Positions 10,612 through 64,000 of a DNA stretch of 64,000 bases are shown piece by piece. Each line of letters begins with the position of its first letter. Position 1 is the first letter of the stretch. A program made the position numbers and the translations under genes. A model generated the notes under the pieces. The model made no database searches. It had not been told where the DNA came from and saw nothing but the letters and a program-made list of their open reading frames with translations. Source of the DNA: Amia ocellicauda (taxonomy: Eukaryota; Chordata; Actinopteri; Amiiformes; Amiidae); the NCBI RefSeq assembly GCF_036373705.1, contig NW_027102661.1:62001-126000 (forward strand), written 5' to 3'.

Positions 10612-13600
10612 AAGGCAGAGTGGTATAATCAGTCTTCAACACTCTTTTATTGTACACCACCCTGAACCGTTTGTTTAGTGATCTATTTTCCAACGTGTAC
10701 CCCTTTTTATTGCGATAGATCTGATTTCCGGCTGTAATAATCTCACGAGGAGGCGCGTCTTTCTCGGTTACAAAACTTTCTACCAGGGTCGTCAGAGACT
10801 TGATGTTAATGAGCTTGTTGTTACAATGGTTCAGAGTGAAACCCTTAACTTTCATACAGGTCTTACCCGCAGCCGTTCTGTATGCGTAAGTCTTAGGACC
10901 CCCTGAAACAAACTCCACTATGTGGTCCTGAGGATCTAGTTCGCTCGTTAACTCCCCAAGGTAGTCCCCGAGGGGAGGGACCCAATCCCCTGGCCTGGTG
11001 ACAAAGATTACAGAGTCAGTATCATGATAGAGCGTGCGTTCCTGCAACTGATCCATTAAGTTGTACAGTTCAAGCCGGGCGTAAGCCGTGGTAAAAACCG
11101 CTATGAAAACATTAACGTTCCCCTGTTTGGTGGGGAAATCTTTAGGGGCCCTCCACTGGACCTGTGCCACATGGTCATTTAAGAATTGAAAGTGTGATAC
11201 TGCATGTTGTTTGGAAAACATAAATTCTATAAACTGTTCAGGGGTTTTAATCAAGGTTGTGTTTAGACGGTAATTTCTTTCCCCAAACTTACCCCACAGA
11301 CTGTTTAAAATCAGTTTGGACATTTGTCTCTTGGCGGGGTTTACAGTTATGTTCCCCAGCTCTAGACGGATCCCTTCCTTTTCAAAATATTGCTAAACGT
11401 ATCGCTCTTTGGCCGCGGAGACAACACACCATGAGGGATAGCCCGATGCCTCCTGTTTCCCTTTCAGATGGGTCATAATGTAATCAGCAAAAAGAGTATC
11501 AGATTTTTCAGAAAAATGCCAAACCTCATACACCTTACCGACTCTGTAACCTTTCTCCACCGCCTTGTCAAGCTCAATGCTACACCAGACACCCGTCAGC
11601 GCTCTCTCTTCATCACTGTGCAGACAAGAGGTAGTTTTATTTTCAGTTTCCACACACGTTCTACACAGAGGGAACATCAATTTTCCCGAACACCTGTAAG
11701 GCAACACGGGTAAGAACAGCTCGCGAGGAGGGTACATGGTGACTTTGATCAAACCAAAGTAATGTCCGATTTCGAGAAAGTCACGATAAACAATGGTTGG
11801 ACGCCCCACCGGGTACATTTTGGTCTTGTTGACATAAGGGTACAGACTGGTGAAATCATAGTAATCTACTCTCTCACCCTCCTTTACCTCATAATGTAAA
11901 CAGAGGGCGTTGGTACGACCCCCAAATAACGCATCCCGGGGCTCAAGACGTTCAGGAAAGTCCAAGGTTTCCATAAACCGTTGTACCCCCGCATCCTGTT
12001 GCTTCAGGGTCGTCCACTCGTGTTCCCAAATCACCAGCACGTTCAAACCATAGGTGTTTTTTAAAGTTTCAATTCGTTCCTGGAAATCATAGTACATATC
12101 ACTGCAGAGTTTTTGTGTTACGGGGTTAAAGGTGTTTGGGTCGAAGCACTGAGGACAGCCATGCTAAATACAACCTGCAAACTCATAAGCGGTACGCCGC
12201 CCGGACACGTCGCTAAAACCGTCTAAGTAGTAAGGCCCCATTTTGACTTCCCCTTGATTTAAAGCATGTCTGATGAAGATGTTATCCCGGGCACTCAGGT
12301 ATTCCAGCCACTGTATGGAGACAGTCGAAAAGTTCTTTTGTCTAGCACGATAGTTGTCAGAAGTGGTGACCGCTATAGTGTTTTTCTGCAAGAAATTGGA
12401 CCGATACATTTTCATGCAGAGAGACGCTATGGTCACACTTTGCAAAGGGTCGAGACCCGATGTGTTGATAACCTCGGCGCGGAAACGCACACAGGCTTCT
12501 TTAAGGATCACCACATCATTTTTACAATAAGCAGCCATCTCTTCTCGGTCATCAAAAACACCTCCCTTAACCGTATTGTACCATTTAAAGAATTCCTCCC
12601 TCTCATGAGACATCATAGTATCAACCCCATAATAAGTGGCGGGCAGGTAGGACCCTCGATAATTTTGAGTGTCCATAGTATTAAAAAAATGGCAGAACCA
12701 ACCTTTCTTCTGAGCCTCAAAACCCAGAGCCTTAGGCAAAGCGCTCAATTTCATGGGGATGAAATTTAACAAGTCTATGTAACGTTAGTTGAAAGCTTCG
12801 TCGGTGAAACACATGATCTTGCTACCCTGAGCTATTATTTTTGGGGTCACCCCATTTTCCACCAGATACTTCATCAAAATGTAAGAATCATAACCCTTAG
12901 CATTGTGGGCAATAAATGTGTAATTGAGGTATTTTGGACCGCGATACCGCGTAAAGAAATCCCTGACACAACTCTCACCGCTAGCTGACCACTCACGATC
13001 CAACATGTCAATACAGAGTATATAATTAGCAACGTGGACCCCGTTTTCTTGCCTGCATTCAAAAGCAAAAAAGACATAACGGTTGTGCGGCGGCTCCTTT
13101 TTAACCGGCTGAATAAAGCACTGGTGTTCGGACCCCGGGGTTAAATCAGCATTACAGATCCTGCATCTCGGCTCCAGACATTTGTGTGGTTTAACCTCAT
13201 GAAAACGGTACTGGAGGCAACACTGCGGGCAATATTTAGTTTGATCACAATAACTCAGTTTTTTAACCCCCTCAGTAGCGGCCCTCTGTACCTTATGCTC
13301 GGAAAAACAGAACGCTGAGAGACAAATCCTTAAGCAATCTTTACATCGGATGGTAGGGGCCAAACCCTTACGACATTGCGGATTGAAACAGACGTTACAG
13401 TAACCGTCACATCGGTGCTTAAGCTTATCATTGAAGGCCTTATAACACCAATGACAAACATACGAACAACCCAAAAAAGCCGTCAAACTCTTTATTCCAA
13501 AGTAATGACTATCACTTAGGAAGAGAAACAGTGTCTGTGTATGGGTTTCAGGATGTGTCTGAAATTTCACAAATACTTCCTTTACCTCACAACGGTACCA

Positions 13601-13939
13601 CACAACAATTTTTAAAGACAACAACTCCTCAAACTTGGTGATGTCTGAAAAGGCAACCATCTGTTGAGAGTTTAAGCCGGCCCTCTGATGAAGCATTAAA
13701 GCTTCTTGCAGAGCTTGGGGTTCAGGCATGTCGGGGGTGAGTAGTTTTATTAAACTGTAAGCAAAACAGAGCTTATTGTCCCCACTGGAACTCACCACTA
13801 ATTGCCTGAGCTTGGTCCTAATTATGTCGTTCTTCAAGCATTTCGACAGTCTTCTAAGCGCCCCACCCTCAGGGTTACGAACCACATTCATTACCAGAGA
13901 CAGACTTTCATCAGCTATGATGGCTGCGTTACTTTGCAA
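10601..13939 (-). pseudogene. Protein-primed-type DNA polymerase B, three stops (copy 1)
   Basis: From N to C: a helical region, a Cys/His-rich region (CDGYCNVCFNPQC, CPQCC), an exonuclease domain (FFAFECRQ; AHNAKGYDSY; YCKNDVVIL) and polymerase motifs A (DYYDFTSLYP), B (LNSLWGKFG) and C (LYHDTDSVIF). This is the Polinton/adenovirus PolB arrangement. In-frame stops break it at 12785-12787 (TAA, all copies), 12164-12166 (TAG, this copy only) and 11393-11395 (TAG, shared with copy 4). The exonuclease I motif has Ala where DxE is expected. The 5' part probably continues in the overlapping frame at 13915-14733. Not functional as read. Confidence 0.9.
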
Positions 13940-14733
13940 TAACGCTTCGATTTTAGCCAGACGTCTAAATTATCTCCACTCAGCATTACAGATAGGTTGC
14001 TAAACAAATCATCCCCTCTGAGTTCTAACTGTACAACATCTCGAGGTCTGACCCTTTCAGCAACCTGTTCAAGCATTTTCTGCAAGGCCTCGTGTATGTT
14101 GACAAATATTTCTGCATAATTGTCACAATTTAAAAGTTCTGCAAAATTAAAACGTTGAATCATTTCAAAATTGTTATAGGCCGGTCTATCTATAATCACG
14201 GGATCACTGGTACTCTTGGACACATCATCATTTTGAACAAAGCCTTCACCCCCTACATTCTCACAGAGCATGACCTCCACAGCCTTATCAGTCTCAGAAC
14301 ACTCCACATTCCGAACACCCCCACTGCTGACATCTACAAAACCCCCTTTTTGAGGAGGCTCATTTAAAGCCTGTAAAAGTCCTTCAAAGATATCCAACCG
14401 GTTAATGTCAAGACCCTCCTCTATAGTGATGGCTGCTTCTGCCGCCATCCTGTGTTCTAATTGTCTCAAATCATTTATAATAGGGGCAGAATTTGGTCGG
14501 GGTAGCTCCTCCAAAGCCTCCACCATTTCAAACAAATCGGGGTGAACTAGGGGGTGAACCTCTATAAGCGCTACCGGTGGGAGGTGGTTATTTAGATCAT
14601 TGACCATCTGTAACAGGTCGGGGTTCACCGGTAAGTCTGTTAATTCACATTCTATCGGTGGTAATTGGGGGTTATTTAAATCATTTATCATTTGTAATAG
14701 TTCCAGGTTCATTGGGACATCAGAGGAGTTCAC
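13915..14733 (-). CDS. Acidic repeat segment, probable N-terminal part of PolB
   Basis: Open 272-codon frame beginning upstream of the PolB body and overlapping it by 25 bp in another frame, identically in all four copies. It holds a 27-28-residue repeat: NLELLQMINDLNN, NPDLLQMVNDLNN, HPDLFEMVEALEE, with a weaker RLDIFEGLLQALNE. Its last residues (VQLELRGDDLF) resemble a segment found within the N-terminal region of other Polinton polymerases, so I infer one ancestral protein split by a frame change near 13960-13970. A separate small gene is the alternative. The frame has no ATG at 14733 (GTG); the first ATG is near 14712. An upstream ATG at 14829 is followed by TGA two codons later. Confidence 0.55.
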   Translation of the reverse strand: MNSSDVPMNLELLQMINDLNNPQLPPIECELTDLPVNPDLLQMVNDLNNHLPPVALIEVHPLVHPDLFEMVEALEELPRPNSAPIINDLRQLEHRMAAEAAITIEEGLDINRLDIFEGLLQALNEPPQKGGFVDVSSGGVRNVECSETDKAVEVMLCENVGGEGFVQNDDVSKSTSDPVIIDRPAYNNFEMIQRFNFAELLNCDNYAEIFVNIHEALQKMLEQVAERVRPRDVVQLELRGDDLFSNLSVMLSGDNLDVWLKSKRYCKVTQPS

Positions 14734-14895: not shown

Positions 14896-16936
14896 TTAAA
14901 TACAGTACAATTCGTTAGTAAGGGTATTAATAAGGGTGTTTTGGCTCTCTATCACCAGGTTTTGCCCCACTAACACAAGTCTTTGATTTTGTAACAAAGT
15001 ATGTAGCAACTCATGCCGACCTTCAGGATGTAGCTCCGGGGGCTGGTGGCCTGGCTCAGCTTCAAAGGATGGTCGCTCCGGTAAATCTCGGTCGAAGGAG
15101 GCAGGGAGCGAGCGTATACTCATGGACGGAGACCAAGAAGGCCTTTGCGGTGACACCCTGGCCAAGCGCGGGGTACTGTTCCGCGTTTCTGTAGCCAAGA
15201 AACGGGTCTGGGGGGACGATGTTGAAACCAGGCCGTCGTTGGGTGGTGTGTCAGCCCTGACTGACGGCGACCCCTGAGGTTGTTGGATGCCTGTATTTGT
15301 TCCGCCTGACAATGCGGCAGGCTGAATCTGGGGTGTTGAATTACTCCCAGAAGGCTGTGGCCTGAGTAGATGTTGGGGGGTCTCCAAGACCACCGTGGGG
15401 GATCCTCTCGGTGATCTCACCGGGGAAGATGTTTGATCCCACTTAGACGGGGTAATTGTCCTCAATAGCTCATTCACAGAATGACTATCCCAAGAGTCTT
15501 GGGAAGAATAAAAATATACATTACATTTACATCTTTAAACGGCGACAGAAATCAAACTTAAAACAACATGTCCAGGACATTCAAAACCTTTAGCTTTTTT
15601 AGACCTTTGAAAATAGCCTTAGACATTCACTACAACGCCTTATTATTTACAGACAATATATTTATTAGGACTTGATAATAAATGTAAAACAGAGAAGCCG
15701 CTGTAAATAAACTGTTTCTTAAATGTTTCTTTAAAAACTGTAATATTGTTAATAAAACACACACACACACAACAACATTTCATTTTTAAACGAACCTTCC
15801 AAGTGTAAACGCTTCCTGATCCCGGGACTTCCTGTTTCACAAACGTTTTCACGATCTGTTTAAATATTAAATACAATGAACACCTTCAAGACTTTTCCTA
15901 CAACCACTTTAAAACAGAAGTATAATAGCGGGATATAAGCCAAACAACTTACTAAACCCTTTCGGACGGCTTTACTTCCTAACCAGACGGTACAGCAATC
16001 GGTCATTTCTAAACACGTTCCCCAGAAACAAGCCTAGACCTGTCCGGACTTCTAAAGATCTTTCCCAGAACCCCCCGCCCTACAGGAAACGGTCACCCAT
16101 CGCTTAAATATTAGCCCTCAACGGGCAAACAAAGCTCTTTTAAAAACATTAAAGTTTGAAAGATCTTACTTACCTCCACAGAATAATCGTTTCTTATGTT
16201 TTTCGGCTGGTTTAGCTTTTTGCACCGCTGTGAAGGTAAGAGACATGTTTAACCTTTAACCACACCGCTTTATAAAAAGCTTTAACCTCTTACAGGCTGC
16301 AGATATATACTCACAGCTATCAGATACCGGGGCTGACGGCCTTTCAGATTCTTGAAAGGTTACGGTTCTCGAAGGTAAAACGAAACAAGCCCTCGATGTG
16401 GAAGGCCTTTCGTTGTCTCGAACCACGTTTCTTAATACTGTTAGACAGGATAATTTTTTTAAATTAACAAAACTGGACTCAAACATCTTACAGAAACGTT
16501 ATACAAACAAACAGGGGTTTAGTTCTTACCCGGTCGGCAGACAGCCTGTCTAGGGACAACCACTTCTCTTGGTCGATCCTCGGAGACATTAATCACAGGC
16601 CTTTCGATAGTTTCTGTGTAATTAAAGAGACCGGCATTATTATATATTAAAACGTTTTCATAACTCTAATGAGCCGCTTCAAAACCACACACACCCATAC
16701 ATAAGAACCCATGAGCGCAAACACAAAAATCTTACCGTCGTTGTTCCAGATGATCTCCTCAGCGTTGGGAATTAACTCCTGTTGACTGGCTGAAAAATAA
16801 TTTTACAGAACTTAAAACAGATGTTATAGCCTTATTTACAATACATGCACACAACACGCTCTGAGTCAATGAAAATAATCTGAAGACTTGCCTAAAAACT
16901 CGTTTAAATCGAATCGCTGATGTTGTTTCCGGACAT
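14896..16936 (-). pseudogene. Right-end spliced gene, at least 7 exons (copy 1; exon-1 deletion)
   Basis: Exons read by splice signals on the minus strand: 16892-16936 (ATG), 16736-16789, 16530-16613, 16315-16437, 16174-16227, 15796-15855 and terminal 14896-15497. Internal exons are 54, 84, 123, 54 and 60 nt, all multiples of three, every join is phase 1, and acceptors such as TTATTTTTCAG and donors such as GAGGTAAGTAAG are strong (exon 1 uses GC). Translated exons share an ERP motif (IERPVI, EDRPRE, NERPST, SERPSA, PERPSF). The last exon encodes a Ser/Pro-rich protein with SP sites. Exon 1 here lacks one base compared with copy 2, giving an early stop. An extra exon near 15950-16130 is possible. 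Family unknown. Confidence 0.65.
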
Positions 16937-17506
16937 TGTTGATCTTTAGTCTTAAATCGAAAGGTCAGTGTGAGTCTGTCGAGCTGAAGACCAGACCTTC
17001 ATACTTATACTGATGGCCACATGCCGGATCTGCTTGTAAGGCATTGTTCTGGTCTGGCCTTTGTGCCACCCTGTTACCAATTAACATATCAAAACCAACC
17101 AATAAAATGACACTGCATCAAATTTCAAATAGAAACCAAGATGGAGACGATCTCTCTCCTCTCTACTCTAAACTTTTATTAGAACCTTTTGGTCTCTCAA
17201 AAAAACATTTTTAAGCATCAAGACCTATAGTCAACAACCACTAAGAATATTTCAGGCCTTTATAAGCGCTAAAAAACAACCTGAGCCTAGAAAATAACTA
17301 TAAAGATCAAAAATAACTAGCGCTTTTACAGTGATTTTTTTATTTATTTTTTATAGCGATGCTTTGTTTGGTATTAAACAAGTCACAAACTACTCAGAAC
17401 AGCGTTTATCCCCGCAAAAGAGATATTTGGGTTTATTTTACAAAGCTTATAAATTATATAGGTTAAAAGTATTCTGAATGTTTTGATATCACACGCCATA
17501 CCTACT
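16937..17506 (-). promoter_or_regulatory. Right terminus with promoter of the spliced gene
   Basis: A minus-strand TATA-like GTATAAGTAT lies at 17001-17010, about 65 bp before the exon-1 ATG. Around it are inverted GGTCTGG/CCAGACC segments (about 16990 and 17050). The outer 400 bp is A/T-rich without any convincing gene and ends CCTACT, complementary to the left-end AGTAGG. Confidence 0.5.
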
Positions 17507-17571
17507 GTTGTCTTCTACACCTTACGGTAGCAACAAATCTAACTACTGCTTTACTTTAACAATAATAATGA

Positions 17572-17631
17572 CGGCGACCACGATGACAACAAGAACAACA
17601 ACAACAACATCATCATCATCATCATCATCAG
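17572..17631. repeat. ACA/CAT microsatellite
   Basis: Composite triplet repeat ending in seven CAT units before the tRNA unit start. Confidence 0.85.
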
Positions 17632-17794
17632 ATTTTAATTAAAAGTGGCTACACCAGCGTTTACAATTTCAACCTGTCGACGGACGGACGCTCTGAGTGC
17701 ATCGATTGCGGGCACTCCAATGAAGAAAAGACACCCACCGCCTCCGGGGAACCACGAGGGCAAGCATGACGAAAAGGGCCAACCCACAGTAGGC

Positions 17795-17867
17795 TGTTTC
17801 CGCCCGGTTTCGAACCGGGGACCTTTCGCGCATTAGGCGAATGTGATAACCGCTACACTACGGAAAC
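17795..17867 (-). tRNA. tRNA-Val(AAC) gene
   Basis: 73-nt minus-strand cloverleaf, acceptor GTTTCCG/CGGAAAC, intact B box GGTTCGAAACC, AAC anticodon. The anticodon stem reads TTCGC/TCGAA-like with one altered pair (CGCGCATTAGGCG on the plus strand), so function is likely but not certain. Confidence 0.75.
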
Positions 17868-18190
17868 TGACAACGCCACCTCTTGCTTCAAACGGTTACC
17901 GTAGGAGCCTGCTGGTAAAACGGGCTCAGGCGTTTCAGGTCGGCTAGACTGTGAGATGGCGTCTGAAGTGCCGCGAAATGATGCCATTTTCACAGACCTG
18001 TTTGGCATTGCTAAAGGGCACATCAGGACACTTCGGAAACTCTTTCAAAGGCAGGACGCCCTGCGCTCTGACAGTGCCTGCACTTAACCCAACAAGGTGA
18101 TGCTGAATGGCTTGTTCAAACGGCTGGTGGTCTTCCGTCACCACCAGACTATGAGAGCTATACTGCGCCTTCAACTACATAAGAGTAGAT

Positions 18191-18486
18191 AGTAGGGTTT
18201 TTTGGGCGCGGCCTATTTTGTTATGACGTATGCCCTAAGCTTATTAATATTCCTACGTCATAATTGGGGGGCGTGATTTTAGGTAGAGTTATTTCCTTAA
18301 TTATTCCTACGTCATATCCGTCAGAAAGTGTACACCCATAAAACCCTGAACAACAAGGCCACCCATAAATACCCCCACCCCTCTGAAGGCAACGCCCCGA
18401 AACTCTCCTCTCTATTTAAGAACCCGCGCTTCTTTTAGGCAATACCTCTTTAATTCTCAGCTTCTGAAACATCCCGCTTCTTCAAC
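18191..18486 (+). promoter_or_regulatory. Left-end early promoter (copy 2)
   Basis: Same three TGACGT-type sites as copy 1 and TATTTAA at 18413-18419. Nearly base-identical, supporting recent duplication. Confidence 0.65.
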
Positions 18487-19197
18487 ATGTCCAGCGACAT
18501 CAACATGAAACCCCGCAAGAAACAATCCCGGGCAAGGGTTCCTGTACTCACCAATTTGAAGATTGAACGCTCCTGGGTGTTGTTCTGGGGGGCTCGACGG
18601 GGTTACCGCTTTAAAAGGGATCCCAGCTATGTTGGAGTGGAGCTTCTTGCTTTGGGAGAGAAGGAGGGTACGTTGGAACCTTTTGAGACGGTAATTGAAT
18701 ACTCTTATGAGGACTGGTTGAAGGTGATGGCCTGGAGAGATCTGGGGCTTGTGGATAAGACTCTAGAAGGCTTGCAAGAGGGTCCAAGAGAATGCGAAAT
18801 GGAGTCTCCGACTCAGGGTTTTGAAAGGTGTGAATGGGAAAGCTTGCAGAACTACGGTAGAGTGGTGAAGAGTCTATCTCTAACTACAGATCGTAAGGTT
18901 TTGTTTAGCAGTACCCTGATTACAAACCCTATTGAAGGGGGTGTGGAGGATCCAGAAAAACAGGTTACTGAAATTATGTTTGACGCCGTGGACTGGCCGT
19001 TCTTGAAAGAGGTCATAAACTGTATAAATGATGGTTTTGACATCTTGACCAAATGTTCGCAACTGGATTTGGTTAGAAGGAGAATATGCTGGATTATGGA
19101 TTATATATCCCCCTTGAATGACGACGACGATGATAAAACAGACGACGTGTGGGGTTTTGGAGGGGGGTCTGACGGCTCAGGGGCTACTCTCTTCTAA
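18487..19197 (+). CDS. Early gene 1, intact, function unknown
   Basis: The only undamaged copy: 236 residues starting MSSDINMKPRKKQSRARVPV. Basic N-terminus (possible nuclear signal), then an Arg/Trp/Tyr-rich stretch (SWVLFWGARRGYRFKRD), a Glu-rich middle, and near the C-terminus a run of five Asp (DDDDDKTDDVWGF) followed by a Gly/Ser end. No family is recognised. It is the first gene at the left end behind ATF-type sites, the place of early regulators in adenovirus-like genomes; that is analogy only. No LxCxE pocket-protein motif or zinc cluster was seen. Copies 1, 3 and 4 are each broken in a different way, so there is no sign of recent selection on the gene. Confidence 0.7.
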   Translation: MSSDINMKPRKKQSRARVPVLTNLKIERSWVLFWGARRGYRFKRDPSYVGVELLALGEKEGTLEPFETVIEYSYEDWLKVMAWRDLGLVDKTLEGLQEGPRECEMESPTQGFERCEWESLQNYGRVVKSLSLTTDRKVLFSSTLITNPIEGGVEDPEKQVTEIMFDAVDWPFLKEVINCINDGFDILTKCSQLDLVRRRICWIMDYISPLNDDDDDKTDDVWGFGGGSDGSGATLF

Positions 19198-26100: not shown

Positions 26101-29100
26101 AAGGCAGAGTGGTATAATCAGTCTTCAACACTCTTTTATTGTACACCACTCTGAACCGTTTGTTTAGTGATCTATTTTCCAACGTGTACCCCTTTTTATT
26201 GCAATAGATCTGATTTCCGGCTGTAATAATCTCACGAGGAGGCGCGTCTTTCTCGTTACAAAACTTTCTACCAGGGTCGTCAGAGACTTGATGTTAATGA
26301 GCTTGTTGTTACAATGGTTCAGAGTGAAACCCTTAACTTTCATACAGGTCTTACCCGCAGCCGTTCTGTATGCATAAGTCTTAGGACCCCCTGAAACAAA
26401 CTCCACTATGTGGTCCTGAGGATCTAGTTCGCTCGTTAACTCCCCAAGGTAGTCCCCGAGGGGAGGGACCCAATCCCCTGGCCTGGTGACAAAGATTACA
26501 GAGTCAGTATCATGATAGAGCGTGCGTTCCTGCAACTGATCCATTAAGTTGTACAGTTCAAGCCGGGCGTAAGCCGTGGTAAAAACCGCTATGAAAACAT
26601 TAACGTTCCCCTGTTTGGTGGGGAAATCTTTAGGGGCCCTCCACTGGACCTGTGCCACATGGTCATTTAAGAATTGAAAGTGTGATACTGCATGTTGTTT
26701 GGAAAACATAAATTCTATGAACAGTTCAGGGGTTTTAATCAAGGTTGTGTTTAGACGGTAATTTCTTTCCCCAAACTTACCCCACAGACTGTTTAAAATC
26801 AGTTTCGACATTTGTCTCTTGGCGGGGTTTACAGTTATGTTCCCCGGCTCTAGACGGATCCCTTCCTTTTCAAAATATTGCTGAACGTATCGCTCTTTGG
26901 CCGCGGAGTCAACACACCATGAGGGAAAGCCCGATGCCTCCTGTTTCCCTTTCAGATGGGTCATAATGTAATCAGCAAAAAGAGTATCAGTTTTTTCAGT
27001 AAAATGCCAAACCTCATACACCTTACCGACTCTGTAACCTTTCTCCACCGCCTTGTCAAGCTCAATGCTACACCAGACACCCGTCAGCGCTCTCTCTTCA
27101 TCACTGTGCAGACAAGAGGTAGTTTGATTTTCAGTTTCCACACACGTTCTACACAGAGGGAACATCAATTTTCCCGAACACCTGTAAGGCAACACGGGTA
27201 AGAACAGCTCGCGAGGAGGGTACATGGTGACTTTGATCAAACTAAAGTAATGTCCGATTTCGAGAAAGTCACGATAAACAATGGTTGGACGCCCCACCGG
27301 GTACATTTTGGTCTTGTTGACATAAGGGTACAGACTGGTGAAATCATAGTAATCTACTCTCTCACCCTCCTTTACCTCATAATGTAAACAGAGGGCATTG
27401 GTACAACCCCCAAATAACGCATCCCGGGGCTCTAGACATTCAGGAAAGTCCAAGGTTTCCATAAACCGTTGTACCCCCGCATCCTGTTGCTTCAGGGTCG
27501 TCCACTCGTGTTCCCAAATCACCAGCACGTTCAAACCATAGGTGTTTTTTAAAGTTTCAATTCGTTCCTGGAAATCATAGTACATATCACCGCAGAGTTT
27601 TAGTGTTACGGGGTTAAAGGTGTTTGGGTCGAAGCACTGAGGACAGCCATGGTAAATACAACCGGCAAACTCATAAGCGGTACGCCGCCCGGACACGTCG
27701 CTAAAACCGTCTAAGTAGTAAGGCCCCATTTTGACTTCCCCTTGATTTAAAGCATGTCTGATGAAGATGTTATCCCGGGCACTCAGGTATTCCACCCACT
27801 GTATGGAGACAGTCGAAAAGTTCTTTTGTCTAGCACGATAGTTGTCAGAAGTGGTGACCGCTATAGTGTTTTTCTGCAAGAAATTGGACCGATACATTTT
27901 CATGCAGAGAGACGCTATGGTCACACTTTGCAAAGGGTTGAGACCCGATGTGTTGATAACCTCGGCGCAGAAACGCACACAGGCTTCTTTAAGGATCACC
28001 ACATCATTTTTACAATAAGCGGCCATCTCTTCTCGGAAATCAAAAACACCTCCCTTAACCGTATTGTACCATTTAAAGAATTCCTCCCTCTCATGAGACA
28101 TCATAGTATCAACCCCATAATAAGAGGCGGGCGGGTAGGACCCTTGATAATTTTGAGTGTCCTTAGTATTAAAAAAATGGCAGAACCAACCTTTCTTCTG
28201 AGCCTCAAAACCCAGAGCCTTAGGCAAAGCGCTCAATTTCATGGGGAGGAAATTTAACAAGTCTATGTAACGTTAGTTGAAAGCTTCGTCGGTGAAACAC
28301 ATGATCTTGCTACCCTGAGCTATTATTTTTGGGGTCACCCCATTTTCCACCAGATACTTCATCAAAATGTAAGAATCATAACCCTTAGCATTGTGGGCAA
28401 TAAATGTGTAATTGAGGTATTTTGGACCTCGATACCGCGTAAAGAAATCCCTGACACAACTCTCACCGCTAGCTGACCACTCACGATCCAACATGTCAAT
28501 ACAGTGTATATAATTAGCAACGTGGACCCCGTTTTCTTGCCGGCATTCAAAAGCAAAAAAGACATACCAGTTGTGCGGCGGCTCCTTTTTAACCGGCTGA
28601 ATAAAGCACTGGTGTTCGGACCCCGGGGTTAAATCAGCATTACAGATCCTGCATCTCGGCTCCAGACATTTGTGTGGTTTAACCTCATGAAAACGGTACT
28701 GGAGGCAACACTGCGGGCAACATTTAGTTTGATCACAATAACTCCATTTTTTAACCCCTCTCAGCAGCGGCCCTCTGTACCTTATGCTCGGAAAAACAGA
28801 ACGCTGAGAGACAAATCCTTAAGCAATCTTTACATCGGATGGTAGGGGCCAAACCCTTACGACATTGCGGATTGAAACAGACGTTACAGTAACCGTCACA
28901 GCGGTGCTTAAGCTTATCATTGAAGGCCTTTTAACACCAATGACAAACATACGAACAACCCAAAAAAGCCGTCAAACTCTTTATTCCAAAGTAATGACTA
29001 TCACTTAGGAAGAGAAACAGTGTCTGTGTATGGGTTTCAGGATGTGTCTGAAATTTCACAAATACTTCCTTTACCTCACAACGGTACCACACAACAATTT

Positions 29101-30222: not shown

Positions 30223-30384
30223 AACAGGGCCGGGGATGTTCTCTCGGGAAGGTCTTTTTGGGGCCCTAGCTTGTTCATAATCCTTTAGTTTGTGAGTTCT
30301 TTTACCAAGTCAGGACATTTTTTAATTTATTTTTTATTTTTCCAACAACCCACAATAGTAAGGCGTTTTGTGTCTATTAAAACA

Positions 30385-32426
30385 TTAAATACGGTACAAT
30401 TCGTTAGTAAGGGTATTAATAAGGGTGTTTTGGCTCTCTATCACCAGGTTTTGCCCCAGTAACACAAGTCTTTGATTTTGTAACAAAGTATGTAGCAACT
30501 CATGCCGACCTTCAGGAAGTAGCTCCGGGGGCTGGTGGCCTGGCTCAGCTTCAAAGGATGGTCGCTCCGGTAAATCTCGGTCGAAGGAGGCAGGGAGCGA
30601 GCGTATACTCATGGACGGAGACCAAGAAGGCCTTTGCGGTGACACCCTGGCCAAGCGCGGGGTACTGTTCCGCGTTTCTGTAGCCAAGAAACGGGTCTGG
30701 GGGGACGATGTTGAAACCAGGCCGTCGTTGGGTGGTGTGTCAGCCCTGACTGACGGCGACCCCTGAGGTTGTTGGATGCCTGTATTTGTTCCGCCCGACA
30801 ATGCGGCGGGCTGAATCTGGGGTGTTGAATTACCCCCAGAAGGCTGTGGCCTGAGTAGATGTTGGGGGGTCTCCAAGACCACCGTGGGGGATCCTCTCGG
30901 TGATCTCACCGGGGAAGATGTTTGATCCCACTTAGACGGGGTAATTGTCCTCAATAGCTCATCCACAGAATGACTATCCCAAGAGTCTTGGGAAGAATAA
31001 AAATATACATTACATTTACATCTTTAAACGGCGACAGAAATCACACTTAAAACAACATGTCCAGGACATTCAAAACCTTTAGCTTTTTTAGACCTTTGAA
31101 AATAGCCTTAGACATTCACTACAACGCCTTATTATTTACAGACAATATATTTATTAGGACTTGATAATAAATGTAAAACAGAGAAGCCGCTGTAAATAAA
31201 CTGTTTCTTAAATGTTTCTTTAAAAACTGTAATATTGTTAATAAAACACACACACACACAACAACATTTCATTTTTAAACGAACCTTCCAAGTGTAAACG
31301 CTTCCTGATCCCGGGACTTCCTGTTTCACAAACGTTTTCACGATCTGTTTAAATATTAAATACAATGAACACCTTCAAGCCTTTTCCTACAACCACTTTA
31401 AAACAGAAGTATAATAGCGGGAGATAAGCCAAACAACTTACTAAACCCTTTCAGACGGCTTTACTTCCTAACCAGACGGTACGGCAATCGGTCATTTCTA
31501 AACACGTTCCCCAGAAACAAGCCTAGACCTGTCCGGACTTCTAAAGATCTTTCCCAGAACCCCCCGCCCTACAGGAAACGGTCACCCATCGCTTAAATAT
31601 TAGCCCTCAACGGGCAAACAAAGCCCTTTTAAAAACATTAAAGTTTGAAAGATCTTACTTACCTCCACAGAATAATCGTTTCTTATGTTTTTCGGCTGGT
31701 TTAGCTTTTTGCACCGCTGTGAAGGTAAGAGACATGTTTAACCTTTAACCACACCGCTTTATAAAAAGCTTTAACCTCTTACAGGCTGCAGACATATACT
31801 CACAGCTATCAGATACCGGGGCTGACGGCCTTTCAGATTCTTGAAAGGTTACGGTTCTCGAAGGTAAAACGAAACAAGCCCTCGATGTGGAAGGCCTTTC
31901 GTTGTCTCGAACCACGTTTCTTAATACTGTTAGACAGGATAATTTTTTTAAATTAACAAAACTGGACTCAAACATCTTACAGAAACGTTATACAAACAAA
32001 CAGGGGTTTAGTTCTTACCCGGTCGGCAGACAGCCTGTCTAGGGACAACCACTTCTCTTGGTCGATCCTCGGAGACATTAATCACAGGCCTTTCGATAGT
32101 TTCTGTGTAATTAAAGAGACCGGCATTAATATATATTAAAACGTTTTCATAACTCTAATGAGCCGCTTCAAAACCACACACACCCATACATAAGAACCCA
32201 TGAGCGCAAACACAAAAATCTTACCGTCGTTGTTCCAGATGATCTCCTCAGCGTTGGGAATTAACTCCTGTTGACTGGCTGAAAAATAATTTTACAGAAC
32301 TTAAAACAGATGTTATAGCCTTATTTACAATACATGCACACAACACGCTCTGAGTCAATGAAAATAATCTGAAGACTTGCCTAAAAACTCGTTTAAATCG
32401 AAGTCGCTGATGTTGTTTCCGGACAT
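30385..32426 (-). CDS. Right-end spliced gene, full exon set (copy 2)
   Basis: Exons at 32381-32426 (starts MSGNNISDFDLNEFL), 32225-32278, 32019-32102, 31804-31926, 31663-31716, 31285-31344 and 30385-30986. Exon 1 is 46 nt here, leaving phase 1; each internal exon is a multiple of three and opens without a stop in that phase, and the last exon enters the Ser/Pro-rich frame in the right phase (DSWDSHS). Exon 1 is acidic, exon 2 contains EEIIWNND, exons 3-4 carry ERP motifs, exon 5 is basic (KHKKR, nuclear-signal-like). Six donors and acceptors agreeing in phase is unlikely by chance. Family unknown; I infer an early, possibly nuclear regulator. Confidence 0.68.
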
Positions 32427-32995
32427 TGTTGATCTTTAGTCTTAAATCGAAAGGTCAGTATGAGTCTGTCGAGCTGAAGACCAGACCTTCATACTTATAC
32501 TGATGGCCACATGCCGGATCTGCTTGTAAGGCATTGTTCTGGTCTTGCCTTTGTGCCACCCTGTTACCAATTAACATATCAAAACCAACCAATAAAATGA
32601 CACTGCATCAAATTTCAAATAGAAACCAAGATGGAGACGATCTCTCTCCTCTCTACTCTAAACTTTTATTAGAACCTTTTGGTCTCTCAAAAAAACATTT
32701 TTAAGCATCAAGACCTATAGTCAACATCCACTAAGAATATTTCAGGCCTTTATAAGCGCTAAAAAACAACCTGAGCCAAGAAAATAACTATAAAGATCTA
32801 AAATAACAAGCGCTTATACAGTGATTCTTTTTTTTTTTTTTATAGCGATGCTTTGTTTGGTATTAAACAAGTTACAAACTACTCAGAACAGCGTTTATCC
32901 CCGCAAAAGAGATATTTGGGTTTATTTTACAATGCTTATATTTTTTATAGGTTAAAAGAATTCTGAATGTTTTGATATCACACGCCATACCTACT
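32427..32995 (-). promoter_or_regulatory. Right terminus and spliced-gene promoter (copy 2)
   Basis: Same TATA-like GTATAAGTAT upstream of exon 1, then A/T-rich terminal sequence with several private differences (a T-run at about 32827-32840) and terminal CCTACT at 32990-32995. Confidence 0.5.
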
Positions 32996-41608: not shown

Positions 41609-44600
41609 AAGGCAGAGTGGTATAATCAGTCTTCAACACTCTTTTATTGTACACCACCCTGAACCGTTTGTTTAGTGATCTATTTTCCAACGTGTACCCC
41701 TTTTTATTGCGATAGATCTGATTTCCGGCTGTAATAATCTCACGAGGAGGCGCGTCTTTCTCGGTTACAAAACTTTCTACCAGGGTCGTCAGAGACTTGA
41801 TGTTAATGAGCTTGTTGTTACAATGGTTCAGAGTGAAACCCTTAACTTTCATACAGGTCTTACCCGCAGCCGTTCTGTATGCGTAAGTCTTAGGACCCCC
41901 TGAAACAAACTCCACTATGTGGTCCTGAGGATCTAGTTCGCTCGTTAACTCCCCAAGGTAGTCCCCGAGGGGAGGGACCCAATCCCCTGGCCTGGTGACA
42001 AAGATTACAGAGTCAGTATCATGATAGAGCGTGCGTTCCTGCAACTGATCCATTAAGTTGTACAGTTCAAGCCGGGCGTAAGCCGTGGTAACACCCGTCA
42101 GCGCTCTCTCTTCATCACTGTGCAGACAAGAGGTAGTTTGATTTTCAGTTTCCACACACGTTCTACACAGAGGGAACATCAATTTTCCCGAACACCAGTA
42201 AGGCAACACGGGTAAGAACAGCTCGCGAGGAGGGTACATGGTGACTTTGATCAAACCAAAGTAATGTCCGATTTCGAGAAAGTCACGATAAACAATGGTT
42301 GGACGCCCCACCGGGTACATTTTGGTCTTGTTGACATAAGGGTACAGACTGGTGAAATCATAGTAATCTTTAGGGGCCCTCCACTGGACCTGTGCCACGT
42401 GGTCATTTAAGAATTGAAAGTGTGATACTGCATGTTGTTTGGAAAACATAAATTCTATAAACTGTTCAGGGGTTTTAATCAAGGTTGTGTTTAGACGGTA
42501 ATTTCTTTCCCCAAACTTACCCCACAGACTGTTTAAAATCTGTTTGGACATTTGTCTCTTGGCGGGGTTTACAGTTATGTTCCCCGGCTCTAGACGGATC
42601 CCTTCCTTTTCAAAATATTGCTGAACGTATCGCTCTTTGGCCGCGGAGTCAACACACCATGAGGGATAGCCCGATGCCTCCTGTTTCCCTTTCAGATGGG
42701 TCATAATGTAATCAGCAAAAAGAGTATCAGATTTTTCAGAAAAATGCCAAACCTCATTCACCTTACCGACTCTGTAACCTTTCTCCACCGCCTTGTCAAG
42801 CTCAATGCTACACCAGACACCCGTCAGCGCTCTCTCTTCATCACTGTGCAGACAAGACGTAGTTTGATTTTCAGTTTCCACACACGTTCTACACAGAGGG
42901 AACATCAATTTTCCCGAACACCTGTAAGGCAACATGGGTAAGAACAGCTCGCGAGGAGGGTACATGGTGACTTTGATCAATCCAAAGTAATGTCCGATTT
43001 CGAGAAAGTCACGATAAACAATGGTTGGACGCCCCACCGGGTACATTTTGGTCTTGTTGACATAAGGGTACAGACTGGTGAAATCATAGTAATCTACTCT
43101 CTCACCCTCCTTTACCTCATAATGTAAACAGAGGGCGTTGGTACGACCCCCAAATAACGCATCCCGGGGCTCTAGACGTTCAGGAAAGTCCAAGGTTTCC
43201 ATAAACCGTTGTACCCCCGCTTCCTGTTGCTTCAGGGTCGTCCACTCGTGTTTCCAAATCACCAGCACGTTCAAACCATAGGTGTTTTTTAAAGTTTCAA
43301 TTCGTTCCTGGAAATCATAGTACATATCACCGCAGAGTTTTTGTGTTACGGGGTTAAAGGTGTTTGGGTCGAAGCACTGAGGACAGCCATGGTAAATACA
43401 ACCTGCAAACTCATAAGCGGTACGCCGCCCGGACACGTCGCTAAAACCGTCTAAGTAGTAAGGCCCCATTTTGACTTCCCCTTGATTTAAAGCATGTCTG
43501 ATGAAGATGTTATCCCGGGCACTCAGGTATTCCAGCCACTGTATGGAGACAGTCGAAAAGTTCTTTTGTCTAGCACGATAGTTGTCAGAAGTGGTGACCG
43601 CTATAGTGTTTTTCTGCAAGAAATTGGACCGATACATTTTCATGCAGAGAGACGCTATGGTCACACTTTGCAAAGGGTCGAGACCCGATGTGTTGATAAC
43701 CTCGGCGCAGAAACGCACACAGGCTTCTTTAAGGATCACCACATCATTTTTACAATAAGCGGCCATCTCTTCTCGGAAATCAAAAACACCTCCCTTAACC
43801 GTATTGTACCATTTAAAGAATTCCTCCCTCTCATGAGACATCATAGTATCAACCCCATAATAAGAGGCGGGCGGGTAGGACCCTCGATAATTCTGAGTGT
43901 CCTTAGTATTAAAAAAATGGCAGAACCAACCTTTCTTCTGAGCCTCAAAACCCAGAGCCTTAGGCAAAGCGCTCAATTTCATGGGGAGGAAATTTAACGA
44001 GTCTATGTAACGTTAGTTGAAAGCTTCGTCGGTGAAACACATGATCTTGCTACCCTGAGCTATTATTTTTGGGGTCACCCCATTTTCCACCAGATACTTC
44101 ATCAAAATGTAAGAATCATAACCCTTAGCATTGTGGGCAATAAATGTGTAATTGAGGTATTTTGGACCGCGATACCGCGTAAAGAAATCCCTGACACAAC
44201 TCTCACCGCTAGCTGACCACTCACGATCCAACATGTCAATACAGTGTATATAATTAGCAACGTGGACCCCGTTTTCTTGCCGGCATTCAAAAGCAAAAAA
44301 GACATACCGGTTGTGTGGCGGCTCCTTTTTAACCGGCTGAATAAAGCACTGGTGTTCGGACCCCGGGGTTAAATCAGCATTACAGATCCTGCATCTCGGC
44401 TCCAGACATTTGTGTGGTTTAACCTCATGAAAACGGTACTGAAGGCAACACTGCGGGCAATATTTAGTTTGATCACAATAACTCCGTTTTTTAACCCCCT
44501 CAGCAGCGGCCCTCTGTACCTTATGCTCGGAAAAACAGAACGCTGAGAGACAAATCCTTAAGCAATCTTTACATCGGATGGTAGGGGCCAAACCCTTATG

Positions 44601-46123: not shown

Positions 46124-48157
46124 TTAAATACGGTACAATTCGTTAGTAAGGGTATTAATAAGGGTGTTTTGGCTCTCTATCACCAGGTTTTGCCCCACTA
46201 ACACAAGTCTTTGATTTTGTAACTAAGTATGTAGCAACTCATGCCGACCTTCAGGAAGTAGCTCCGGGGGCTGGTGGCCTGGCTCAGCTTCAAAGGATGG
46301 TCGCTCCGGTAAATCTCGGTCGAAGGAGGCAGGGAGCGAGCGTATACTCATGGACGGAGACCAAGAAGGCGTTTGCGGTAACACCCTGGCCAAGCGCGGG
46401 GTACTGTTCCGCGTTTCTGTAGCCAAGAAACGGGTCTGGGGGGACGATGTTGAAACCAGGCCGTCGTTGGGTGGTGTGTCAGCCCTGACTGACGGCGACC
46501 CCTGAGGTTGTTGGATGCCTGTATTTGTTCCGCCCGACAATGCGGCGGGCTGAATCTGGGGTGTTGAATTACCCCCAGAAGGCTGTGGCCTGAGTAGATG
46601 TTGGGGGGTCTCCAAGACCACCGTGGGGGATCCTCTCGGTGATCTCACCGGGGAAGATGTTTGATCCCACTTAGACGGGGTAATTGTCCTCAATAGCTCA
46701 TCCACAGAATGACTATCCCAAGAGTCTTGGGAAGAATAAAAATATACATTACATTTACATCTTTAAACGGCGACAGAAATCAAACTTAAAACAACATGTC
46801 CAGCACATTCAAAACCTTTAGCTTTTTTAGACCTTTGAAAATAGCCTTAGACATTCACTACAACGCCTTATTATTTACAGACAATATATTTATTAGGACT
46901 TGATAATAAATGTAAAACAGAGAAGCCGCTGTAAATAAACTGTTTCTTAAATGTTTCTTTAAAAACTGTAATATTGTTAATAAAACACACACACACACAA
47001 CAACATTTCATTTTTAAACGAACCTTCCAAGTGTAAACGCTTCCTGATCCCGGGACTTCCTGTTTCACAAACGTTTTCACGATCTGTTTAAATATTAAAT
47101 ACAATGAACACCTTCAAGCCTTTTCCTACAACCACTTTAAAACAGAAGTATAATAGCGGGAGATAAGCCAAACAACTTACTAAACCCTTTCGGACGGCTT
47201 TACTTCCTAACCAGACGGTACGGCAATCGGTCATTTCTAAACACGTTCCCCAGAAACAAGCCTAGATCTGTCCGGACTTCTAAAGATCTTTCCCAGAACC
47301 CCCCGCCCTACAGGAAACGGTCACCCATCGCTTAAATATTAGCCCTCAACGGGCAAACAAAGCCCTTTTAAAAACATTAAAGTTTGAAAGATCTTACTTA
47401 CCTCCACAGAATAATCGTTTCTTATGTTTTTCGGCTGGTTTAGCTTTTTGCACCGCTGTGAAGGTAAGAGACATGTTTAACCTTTAACCACACCGCTTTA
47501 TAAAAAGCTTTAACCTCTTACAGGCTGCAGACATATACTCACAGCTATCAGATACCGGGGCTGACGGCCTTTCAGATTCTTGAAAGGTTACGGTTCTCGA
47601 AGGTAAAACGAAACAAGCCCTCGATGTGGAAGGCCTTTCGTTGTCTCGAACCACGTTTCTTAATACTGTTAGACAGGATAATTTTTTTAAAATTAACAAA
47701 ACTGGACTCAAACATCTTACAGAAACGTTATACAAACAAACAGGGGTTTAGTTCTTACCCGGTCGGCAGACAGCCTGTCTAGGGACAACCACTTCTCTTG
47801 GTCGAGACATTAATCACAGGCCTTTCGATAGTTTCTGTGTAATTAAAGAGACCGGCATTAATATATATTAAAACGTTTTCATAACTCTAATGAGCCGCTT
47901 CAAAACCACACACACCCATGCATAAGAACCCATGAGCGCAAACACAAAAATCTTACCGTCGTTGTTCCAGATGATCTCCTCAGCGTTGGGAATTAACTCC
48001 TGTTGACTGACTGAAAAATAATTTTACAGAACTTAAAACAGATGTTATAGCCTTATTTACAATACATGCACACAACACGCTCTGAGTCAATGAAAAGAAT
48101 CTGAAGACTTGCCTAAAAACTCGTTTAAATCGAATCGCTGATGTTGTTTCCGGACAT
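46124..48157 (-). pseudogene. Right-end spliced gene, three lesions (copy 3)
   Basis: Exons at 48113-48157 (1-bp loss as in copy 1), 47957-48010, 47759-47834 (8 bp missing from GATCCTCG region, so 76 not 84 nt), 47543-47665, 47402-47455, 47024-47083 and 46124-46725. The last exon has a TAG (46223-46225) in place of a Leu codon after ELLHT. Confidence 0.65.
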
Positions 48158-48794: not shown

Positions 48795-48851
48795 GCGACC
48801 ACGATGACAACAAGAACAAAACAACAACATCATCATCATCATCATCATCAG
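48795..48851. repeat. ACA/CAT microsatellite
   Basis: Composite triplet repeat with seven CAT units. Confidence 0.85.
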
Positions 48852-49008
48852 ATTTTAATTAAAAGTGGCTACACCAGCGTTTACAATTTCAACCTGTCGA
48901 CGGACGGACGCTCTGAGTGCATCGATTGCGGGCACTCCAATGAAGAAAAGACACCCACCGCCTCCGGGGAACCACGAGGGCAAGCATGACGAAAAGGGCA
49001 CAGTAGGC

Positions 49009-49081
49009 TGTTTCCGCCCGGTTTCGAACCGGGGACCTTTCGCGCGTTGGGCGAACGTGATAACCGCTACACTACGGAAAC
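49009..49081 (-). tRNA. tRNA-Val(AAC)-like gene with C at position 33
   Basis: 73-nt minus-strand tRNA with intact acceptor and B box. The base before anticodon AAC, almost always U33, is C (GCGTTGGGCG on the plus strand), so it is likely impaired. Confidence 0.7.
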
Positions 49082-49445
49082 TGACACCGCTGCCTCTTGC
49101 TTCAAATGGTTACCGTTAAAGCCTGCTGGTAAAACGGGCTCAGGTGTTTCAGGTCGGCTAGGCTGTGAGATGTCGTCTGAAGTGCGGCGAAAGGATGCCA
49201 TTTTCACTGACCTGTTTGGCATTGCTAAAGGGCACATCAGGACACTTTGGAAACTCTTTCAAAGGAAGAACGCCCTGAGCTATGACAAGACTTACACTTA
49301 CCCCAACAAGGTGATGCTCAATGGCTTGTTCAAACAGCTGCTGCTTGTCTTGTGCCACCATCAGACAATCACAGAGCTATTGTGCCTTCTGCACCTTACG
49401 GTAGCAACAAATCTAACTACTGCTTTACTTTAACAATAATAATGA

Positions 49446-49516
49446 CGGCGACCACGATGACAACAAGAACAACAACAAGAACAACAACAACAACATCATC
49501 ATCATCATCATCATCA
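49446..49516. repeat. ACA/AGA/CAT microsatellite
   Basis: Composite triplet repeat ahead of the second tRNA unit. Confidence 0.85.
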
Positions 49517-49680
49517 GATTTTAATTAAAAGTGGCTACACCAGCGTTTACAATTTCAACCTGTCGACGGACGGACGCTCTGAGAGCACCGATTTCGGGCA
49601 CTCCAATGAAGAAAAGCTACCCACCGCCTCCGGGGAACCACGAGGGCAAACAGGATGAAATGGACCGGCCCACAGCAGGC

Positions 49681-49753
49681 TGTTTCCGCCCGGTTTCGAA
49701 CCGGGGACCTTTCGCGTGTTAGGCGAACGTGATAACCGCTACACTACGGAAAC
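49681..49753 (-). tRNA. tRNA-Val(AAC) gene
   Basis: 73 nt on the minus strand, all stems paired, U33, anticodon AAC, B box GGTTCGAAACC. The most canonical tRNA in the window; likely functional. Confidence 0.85.
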
Positions 49754-49952
49754 TGACACCGCCACGTCTTGCTTCAAACGGTTACCGTTGAAGCCTGCTG
49801 GTAAAACGGGCTCACGCATTTCAGGTCGGCTAGACTGTGAGATGGCGTCTGAAGTGCCGCGAAAGGATGCCATTTTCACAGACCTGTTTGGCATTGCTAA
49901 AGGGCACATCAGGACACTTTGGAAACTCTTTCAAAGGCAGGTCGCCCTGCGC

Positions 49953-62499: not shown

Positions 62500-64000
62500 T
62501 TAAATACGGTACAATTCGTTAGTAAGGGTATTAATAAGGATGTTTTGGCTCTCTATCACCAGGTTTTGCCCCACTAACACAAGTCTTTGATTTTGTAACA
62601 AAGTATGTAGCAACTCATGCCGACCTTCAGGATGTAGCTCCGGGGGCTGGTGGCCTGGCTCAGCTTCAAAGGATGGTCGCTCCGGTAAATCTCGGTCGAA
62701 GGAGGCAGGGAGCGAGCGTACACTCATGGACGGAGACCAAGAAGGCCTTTGCGGTGACACCCTGGCCAAGCGCGGGGTACTGTTCCGCGTTTCTGTAGCC
62801 AAGAAACGGGTCTGGGGGGACGATGTTGAAACCAGGCCGTCGTTGGGTGGTGTGTCAGCCCTGACTGACGGCGACCCCTGAGGTTGTTGGATGCCTGTAT
62901 TTGTTCCGCCCGACAATGCGGCGGGCTGAATCTGGGGTGTTGAATTACCCCCAGAAGGCTGTGGCCTGAGTAGATGTTGGGGGGTCTCCAAGACCACCGT
63001 GGGGGATCCTCTCGGTGATCTCACCGGGAAAGATGTTTGATCCCACTTAGACGGGGTAATTGTCCTCAATAGCTCATTCACAGAATGACTATCCCAAGAG
63101 TCTTGGGAAGAATAAAAATATACATTACATTTACATCTTTAAACGGCGACAGAAATCAAACTTAAAACAACATGTCCAGGACATTCAAAACCTTTAGCTT
63201 TTTTAGACCTTTGAAAATAGCCTTAGACATTCACTACAACGCCTTATTATTTACAGACAATATATTTATTAGGACTTGATAATAAATTTAAAACAGAGAA
63301 GCCGCTGTAAATAAACTGTTTCTTAAATGTTTCTTTAAAAACTGTAATATTGTTAATAAAACACACACACACACAACAACATTTCATTTTTAAACGAACC
63401 TTCCAAGTGTAAACGCTTCCTGATCCCGGGACTTCCTGTTTCACAAACGTTTTCACGATCTGTTTAAATATTAAATACAATGAACACCTTCAAGCCTTTT
63501 CCTACAACCACTTTAAAACAGAAGTATAATAGCGGGAGATAAGCCAAACAACTTACTAAACCCTTTCGGACGGCTTTACTTCCTAACCAGACGGTACGGC
63601 AATCGGTCATTTCTAAACACGTTCCCCAGAAACAAGCCTAGACCTGTCCGGACTTCTAAAGATCTTTCCCAGAACCCCCCGCCCTACAGGAAACGGTCAC
63701 CCATCGCTTAAATATTAGCCCTCAACGGGCAAACAAAGCCCTTTTAAAAACATTAAAGTTTGAAAGATCTTACTTACCTCCACAGAATAATCGTTTCTTA
63801 TGTTTTTCGGCTGGTTTAGCTTTTTGCACCGCTGTGAAGGTAAGAGACATGTTTAACCTTTAACCACACCGCTTTATAAAAAGCTTTAACCTCTTACAGG
63901 CTGCAGATATATACTCACAGCTATCAGATACCGGGGCTGACGGCCTTTCAGATTCTTGAAAGGTTACGGTTCTCGAAGGTAAAACGAAACAAGCCCTCGA
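62500..64000 (-). CDS. Right-end spliced gene, 3' exons (copy 4, runs off window)
   Basis: Exons 63919-64000 (partial), 63778-63831, 63400-63459 and terminal 62500-63101, at the same relative places and phases as in copy 2. No break is seen in these parts; exons 1-3 lie outside the window. Confidence 0.6.

What the first reader, a model, noticed from the sequence alone, without database searches (positions are those of the whole stretch)
14896..17010. Undescribed multi-exon right-end gene with all introns in phase 1
Seen on the minus strand: a TATA-like box, an ATG exon, five internal exons of 54, 84, 123, 54 and 60 nt, and a large Ser/Pro-rich terminal exon, every junction in phase 1 with good donor and acceptor sequences. 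All internal exons can be skipped or shuffled without changing frame, allowing many isoforms. I know no family for it. Viral early genes with seven short symmetric exons are unusual.
Basis: partly seen in the sequence, partly recalled or inferred. Interest (0 to 1): 0.85.

Follow-up and report, generated by a model that had tools for sequence, protein, structure and literature searches.

The report
Seven-exon orphan gene of bowfin adintovirus
Virus-derived elements repeated through the bowfin fish genome carry a gene that looks split into seven small pieces and has no known relatives, although genes of such elements are described as unsplit, and two of the pieces hold short motifs like those that bind cell-division regulators.

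Summary
The window is four head-to-tail adintovirus/Maverick units in the bowfin (Amia ocellicauda) genome. The minus-strand gene holds up as an evolved gene model: TATA box, exons of 46/54/84/123/54/60/602 nt, all junctions phase 1, polyadenylation signal. At the coordinates given (unit 1) exon 1 meets a stop before its donor; it is open in unit 2, in 6 of 41 array loci, and in 39 of 40 copies outside this array (the other reads N). Of those 40, 35 are open in all seven exons. Ten copies of an older subfamily keep all seven modal exon lengths while introns drift. NCBI models of two bowfin copies use the last three junctions exactly, but neither contains exons 1-3. Exon skipping is possible but untested; there were no RNA data. 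No homologue was found outside bowfin. A survey of vertebrate Mavericks saw no introns in intact elements, so this accessory gene is unusual. Mechanistic guess (about 0.35): a mostly disordered nuclear regulator docking cyclin-CDK through two basic RxL motifs, one on each of two frame-neutral exons, before a stretch rich in S/T-P sites. Against it: amino-acid selection is weak and binding rests on motifs chosen after reading the sequence.

The parts
17004..17009 (-). Unit 1 TATA-like box (TATAAG), 73 nt before the ATG
   Evidence: TATAAG in 67 of 68 sequences (the other reads N) and in 7 of 10 older copies
16892..16936 (-). Unit 1 exon 1 (ATG exon); in this unit the frame meets a stop before the donor
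16736..16789 (-). Unit 1 exon 2, 54 nt
16530..16613 (-). Unit 1 exon 3, 84 nt
16315..16437 (-). Unit 1 exon 4, 123 nt
   Evidence: also in NCBI models P0001 and P0002
16174..16227 (-). Unit 1 exon 5, 54 nt; codes KKRLF (RxL-type motif)
15796..15855 (-). Unit 1 exon 6, 60 nt; codes RKRLHL (RxL-type motif)
14896..15497 (-). Unit 1 exon 7, 602 nt, Ser/Pro-rich with a C-terminal helix
14844..14849 (-). Unit 1 polyadenylation signal AATAAA
   Evidence: AATAAA within 90 nt of the stop in 68 of 68 sequences
32494..32499 (-). Unit 2 TATA-like box
32381..32426 (-). Unit 2 exon 1, 46 nt, ends at a GC donor
32225..32278 (-). Unit 2 exon 2, 54 nt
32019..32102 (-). Unit 2 exon 3, 84 nt
31804..31926 (-). 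Unit 2 exon 4, 123 nt
31663..31716 (-). Unit 2 exon 5, 54 nt
31285..31344 (-). Unit 2 exon 6, 60 nt
30385..30986 (-). Unit 2 exon 7, 602 nt
30333..30338 (-). Unit 2 polyadenylation signal
46124..48157 (-). Unit 3 copy (approximate span, taken from the BLAST offsets); broken in exons 1, 3 and 7
62500..64000 (-). Unit 4 copy, cut by the window end; read whole as L022, where exon 1 is broken

Best explanation
An accessory gene at the right end of a bowfin adintovirus/Maverick, just outside and in the same direction as its DNA polymerase frame, with its own TATA box, seven small exons and its own polyadenylation signal (gene model: about 0.85). Inferred: it makes a mostly disordered nuclear protein of about 340 residues with an acidic front (exons 1-2), two basic patches that each hold an RxL/Cy-type cyclin-docking motif (exon 5 KKRLF, exon 6 RKRLHL), a stretch with many S/T-P sites and a C-terminal helix that may oligomerise. 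It would bind cyclin-CDK and be phosphorylated by it, or divert it, tying early viral expression or DNA replication to the host cell cycle. Because the exons are symmetric, either docking motif could be left out without a frame change. Shown: exon lengths, frames, motif retention, position. Inferred: transcription, splicing, nuclear location, cyclin binding. The confidence given is for the whole statement, mechanism included.
For: Gene model: sites rank near the top of the region and shuffles do not reach the chain; all seven frames open in 35 of 40 copies outside the array; all seven modal exon lengths equal in older and younger copies while introns 2, 4, 5, 6 differ; exons 4|5|6|7 joined identically in P0001 and P0002; TATA and AATAAA kept. 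In 10 older copies true sites are kept somewhat more often than other intronic AG/GT: AG 55 of 57 against 482 of 538, GT 42 of 46 against 778 of 947. Mechanism: two basic RxL motifs (shuffle mean 0.15, fraction reaching 2: 0.011), 13 S/T-P (mean 6.5, 0.005), 3 S/T-P-x-K/R (mean 0.7, 0.028); KKRLF and RKRLHL each in 67 of 68 sequences and 8 of 10 older copies; HCMV pUL21a RRLFQ binds cyclin A2 (PMC4231158, passages); the E2F1 peptide PVKRRLDL acts on CDK2/cyclin A/E (PMC4381256, passages).
Against: No transcript evidence. NCBI's model for L056, a copy with all seven exons open, starts at an ATG in intron 3, not in exon 1. Fixed changes are 35 non-synonymous to 17 synonymous, close to the neutral share; in-array changes look neutral; pairwise dN/dS 0.47-1.58 over 24 chosen pairs, 22 below 1. 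Fixed changes at donors (1 of 36) and acceptors (0 of 18) are too few to differ from introns (52 of 948). The loose RxL pattern is not enriched (4 against 2.0, fraction 0.13), and the stricter patterns were chosen after reading the sequence. The basic stretches may be plain nuclear localisation signals. The model is low-confidence (mean pLDDT 41.5).
Confidence: 0.35

Rival explanations
1. The gene is real and spliced, but codes for an early transcription or chromatin regulator (acidic activation region, nuclear localisation signals, oligomerising helix) with no cyclin link; the RxL-like stretches are only basic localisation signals.
For: Acidic exons 1-2 and basic exon 5; C-terminal helix; the loose RxL pattern is not enriched.
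Against: Both basic stretches carry L plus a bulky hydrophobic residue at +1 or +2, the pattern given for validated RXL/Cy motifs, and S/T-P sites are about twofold enriched.
Confidence: 0.35
2. The working gene is shorter: transcription starts in or before intron 3 and only exons 4-7 are used; exons 1-3 are remnants or belong to a rare isoform.
For: P0001 starts at an ATG in intron 3 of L056 although exons 1-3 are open there; neither NCBI model contains exons 1-3.
Against: Exons 1-3 keep modal lengths across subfamilies and are open in nearly all of the 40 copies; TATA kept; exon 2 and 3 sites rank high.
Confidence: 0.12
3. The gene is a captured host gene that kept its introns.
For: Vertebrate-like exon sizes and splice sites; other genes of these elements here are long frames.
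Against: No host or other homologue among the candidates scored, nothing convincing in Pfam or PDB sequences. The bowfin searches scored only the best candidates, so a distant host copy could be missed.
Confidence: 0.12
4. The exons are a chance pattern in non-coding terminal DNA.
For: In-array changes look neutral; non-exon AG and GT sites are also unchanged among the young copies.
Against: No shuffle of 1000 gave more than 3 cassettes against 6; exon lengths fixed across subfamilies while introns drift; NCBI models share three junctions.
Confidence: 0.03

Closest known systems
Vertebrate Mavericks / adintoviruses with accessory regions (PMC8097293; PMC11071296)
   Same: Integrase with chromodomain, PolB, C5-type protease, PolB 46-52% identical to two named adintovirus PolB-C proteins; the gene sits beyond the PolB frame, where accessory regions are described.
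   Different: The accessory gene has six introns, whereas intact vertebrate Mavericks are described with intronless ORFs and no introns seen; array units show no long inverted repeats.
NCBI LOC136721633 and LOC136717369, uncharacterized proteins [Amia ocellicauda]
   Same: Copies of this gene: exons 4-7 joined at the same borders.
   Different: Database models without exons 1-3; their names do not mark them as viral.
Viral and cellular RxL/Cy cyclin-docking proteins (HCMV pUL21a; E2F1 peptide PVKRRLDL)
   Same: Basic RxL core with a bulky hydrophobic residue at +1 or +2.
   Different: Two motifs on two separate frame-neutral exons and many S/T-P sites, where pUL21a is reported to have one; no sequence homology was found and binding is untested.

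Membership tests
Adintovirus / Maverick (the element) | Type B DNA polymerase of the adintovirus kind | tested here: met
   DNA_pol_B_2 1.3e-38; 'Pimephales minnow adintovirus' 52% over 79% and 'Rhodactis coral adintovirus' 46% over 94%. The OTU-like front domain was not tested.
Adintovirus / Maverick (the element) | rve integrase with C-terminal chromodomain | tested here: met
   rve 2e-12 and Chromo 4.4e-8 in one frame, both above the cut-offs
Adintovirus / Maverick (the element) | Capsid proteins recognisable by sequence | tested here: inconclusive
   Peptidase_C5 just above cut-off (23.1 against 21.3); Pox_A32-like ATPase below cut-off; no capsid family matched in Pfam
[quoted passage not shown]
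Adintovirus / Maverick (the element) | Genes without introns | tested here: not met
   For this one accessory gene, as a gene model: six introns. Stated of intact vertebrate Mavericks in PMC8097293.
RxL/Cy cyclin-docking proteins | Basic RxL core with hydrophobic residue at +1 or +2 | tested here: met
   KKRLF and RKRLHL; the looser pattern is not enriched
RxL/Cy cyclin-docking proteins | Binding to the cyclin hydrophobic patch | not testable with these tools
   needs a pull-down
LxCxE (Rb-binding) viral oncoproteins | LxCxE motif | tested here: not met
   no match in the 340 residues

The most novel reading that the evidence does not exclude
A vertebrate DNA virus lineage uses symmetric phase-1 cassette exons as a combinatorial early gene: from one promoter, exon skipping makes isoforms with none, one or both cyclin-docking motifs, with or without the acidic front, so that the virus can tune its hold on the host cell cycle.
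Probability: 0.12. Interest if true: 0.8.

Novelty: new variant of a known kind. Interest (0 to 1): 0.56.

Why it matters
It runs against the statement that no introns were seen in genes of intact vertebrate Mavericks, shows how an accessory gene can be missed when only long frames are annotated, and offers a testable link between an endogenous adintovirus and the host cell cycle. Bowfin, with at least 262 loci that match exon 7 (133 and 129), is a natural place to test expression.

Tried and rejected
Relatives outside bowfin: exon 7 (2 hits, both bowfin, among 329 candidates) and a three-row alignment (the same 2; only the 7997 candidates sharing most words were scored). Viral contigs with PolB: nothing confirmed. 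Pfam, PHROGs, PDB sequences: only weak hits (Arterivirus envelope 0.015 in one of three members; UBE2Z 0.019 to 0.067), taken as chance. Splicing into the polymerase frame: not favoured, as in four loci read (L049, L050, L053, L055, nearly alike) that frame starts with its own ATG behind the polyA signal. Exon duplication as origin of the cassettes: best match 10 nt, E 0.018 (exons 3 and 4), not convincing. LxCxE: absent. Strong purifying selection: not found. Splice dinucleotides among young copies as proof: rejected, since most other high-scoring sites are unchanged too. NCBIfam and PADLOC were not searched; fold search was not run on the low-confidence model.

Counting notes. One search has 42 rows but 41 loci, since L047 is unit 2 again. 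The 68 sequences are 28 array sequences after identical ones were dropped (unit 2 still twice) plus 40 from outside the array. Those 40 were picked by hand from the 133 rows: the first 20 rows, then 20 further down; the one row with a listed stop was not taken, and a few lie in other arrays. The 10 older copies were picked by hand from the 129 exon-7 rows, all from rows without a listed stop (28 of the 129 rows have one). So exon 7 is biased towards open in both sets. Many young copies are nearly identical, so their counts are not independent. One search compared 7 young with 10 old sequences.

Full report
What the window is. It lies at G000:C14:62001-126000 of a 988-Mb genome in 385 contigs. 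Two NCBI bowfin proteins found with exon 7 come from contigs of 233,638 and 23,551,355 bases, the lengths of C49 and C27, and the exons of P0001 were found in the C49 stretch; so the host is the bowfin Amia ocellicauda (taxonomy). The window holds four head-to-tail units about 15.5-16.6 kb apart. Unit genes include an integrase with chromodomain, a C5-type protease, a weak ATPase match below cut-off and a type B polymerase. The best PolB relatives are fish and frog proteins and, by name, PolB-C of the Pimephales minnow and Rhodactis coral adintoviruses (120 of 866 hits listed).

The observation. Over 41 array loci (42 rows, one locus twice) exon 1 is open in 6, exon 2 in 41, exon 3 in 40, exon 4 in 38, exons 5 and 6 in 41 and exon 7 in 34. 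The exon 1 donor is GC in the array and GT in the 39 readable of 40 copies elsewhere. Chance is an unlikely source, with the reservations that thresholds were set from the observed sites and the matrix was recalled.

Comparative evidence. Forty copies outside the array are 94.7-97.1% identical to unit 2 over their BLAST pieces. In 35 of 40 all seven frames are open: L069 and L084 (exon 2), L078 (exon 5) and L086 (exon 4) are broken, and exon 1 of L087 reads N. L070 and L072, counted as open, have in-frame length changes; L085, counted as open, has lost the exon 5 donor dinucleotide. Ten copies of an older subfamily, 89-95% identical to unit 2 over their pieces, are mostly damaged, each in its own way, but show the same exons. 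All seven modal exon lengths equal those of the young copies, while introns 2, 4, 5 and 6 have shifted. Fixed differences: coding 52 of 1023, deep intron 52 of 948, donor positions 1 of 36, acceptor positions 0 of 18; 35 non-synonymous and 17 synonymous, against an expected synonymous share of 0.31. So frame and borders are kept, but the amino-acid sequence, exon 7 above all, changes about as fast as introns. Pairwise dN/dS was 0.47-1.58 over 24 chosen pairs, 22 below 1. Inside the array, changes in exons 2-7 are 19 non-synonymous, 5 synonymous and 3 to stop, about neutral.

Independent gene models. P0001 and P0002 join exons 4|5|6|7 at these borders. P0001 belongs to L056, where all seven exons are open, yet its model starts at an ATG in intron 3. 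Whether transcripts support these models is unknown to me.

Place in the element. In four loci read downstream (nearly alike), the polymerase N-terminal frame starts with its own ATG just behind this gene's polyadenylation signal; in the window's units it is split into two frames. The gene is thus the outermost one seen on the polymerase side. [quoted passage not shown]). PMC11071296 (passages) says most mammal-associated adintoviruses seem to encode anti-apoptotic homologues or candidate oncogenes; no passage seen describes a spliced adintovirus gene. The founding adintovirus paper is not held. Searches of print; nothing seen there describes this gene, but most of those papers were seen as listings only, the one paper holding both bowfin and Maverick (PMC7599744) among them.

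How it may work. The protein has an acidic front, a basic exon 5 with KKRLF, exon 6 with SPGIRKRLHLE and 13 S/T-P sites, three of them S/T-P-x-K/R. The motifs are kept in nearly all copies read, as expected in part from close kinship. The structure model is disordered but for a C-terminal helix (residues 254-294 of P0001; mean pLDDT 41.5 overall). [quoted passage not shown] Cyclin docking is therefore the most specific guess, held at about 0.35 because short motifs arise easily and were chosen after reading the sequence. That each motif lies on its own frame-neutral exon is a fact of the gene model; that the cell uses this is not shown.

Verdict. A conserved multi-exon orphan accessory gene of a bowfin adintovirus/Maverick lineage, broken in exon 1 at the coordinates given; unusual against the published picture I could read; function inferred only.

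Noticed in passing
G000 contigs C11 (first 0.9 Mb), C12-C17, C63, C68, C89; the window is part of C14: The tandem array reaches far beyond the window: matches lie along almost the whole of several contigs of 0.5-1 Mb and the end of a 38-Mb contig. By inference an array of several Mb of an endogenous adintovirus; total copy number was not measured.
   Followed up: partly
G000:C6:49.4-50.6 Mb, C25:1.3-2.2 Mb, C42, C55, C78, C117, C143, C372: Further clusters of the same gene at other places, besides copies scattered over many large contigs: 133 exon-7 loci and 129, without overlap by eye, both capped.
   Followed up: partly
window 17010-18487 and the matching junctions: No long inverted repeats at the unit junction, so array units seem to have been joined with loss of at least one terminal repeat; how the array arose is open.
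   Followed up: partly
window 12785-14733 and the matching stretch of unit 2: The polymerase N-terminal frame is split in the array but is one open frame in four loci elsewhere.
   Followed up: partly
window 42091-42369 and 42817-43095: A short tandem duplication inside the polymerase frame of unit 3.
   Followed up: no
window 48820-49119 and 49486-49785; also 1-300 and 1648-1947: Left-end repeats duplicated at unit starts.
   Followed up: no
window 12266-12769, 27754-28257, 43494-43997, 59870-60373 (+): A 167-codon open frame antisense to the polymerase region in all four units; may be chance.
   Followed up: no
L096 / P0002: NCBI's second model has a front part (about 32 residues) not found in the 2.6 kb fetched at its locus; it may be a fusion with a distant exon.
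   Followed up: partly
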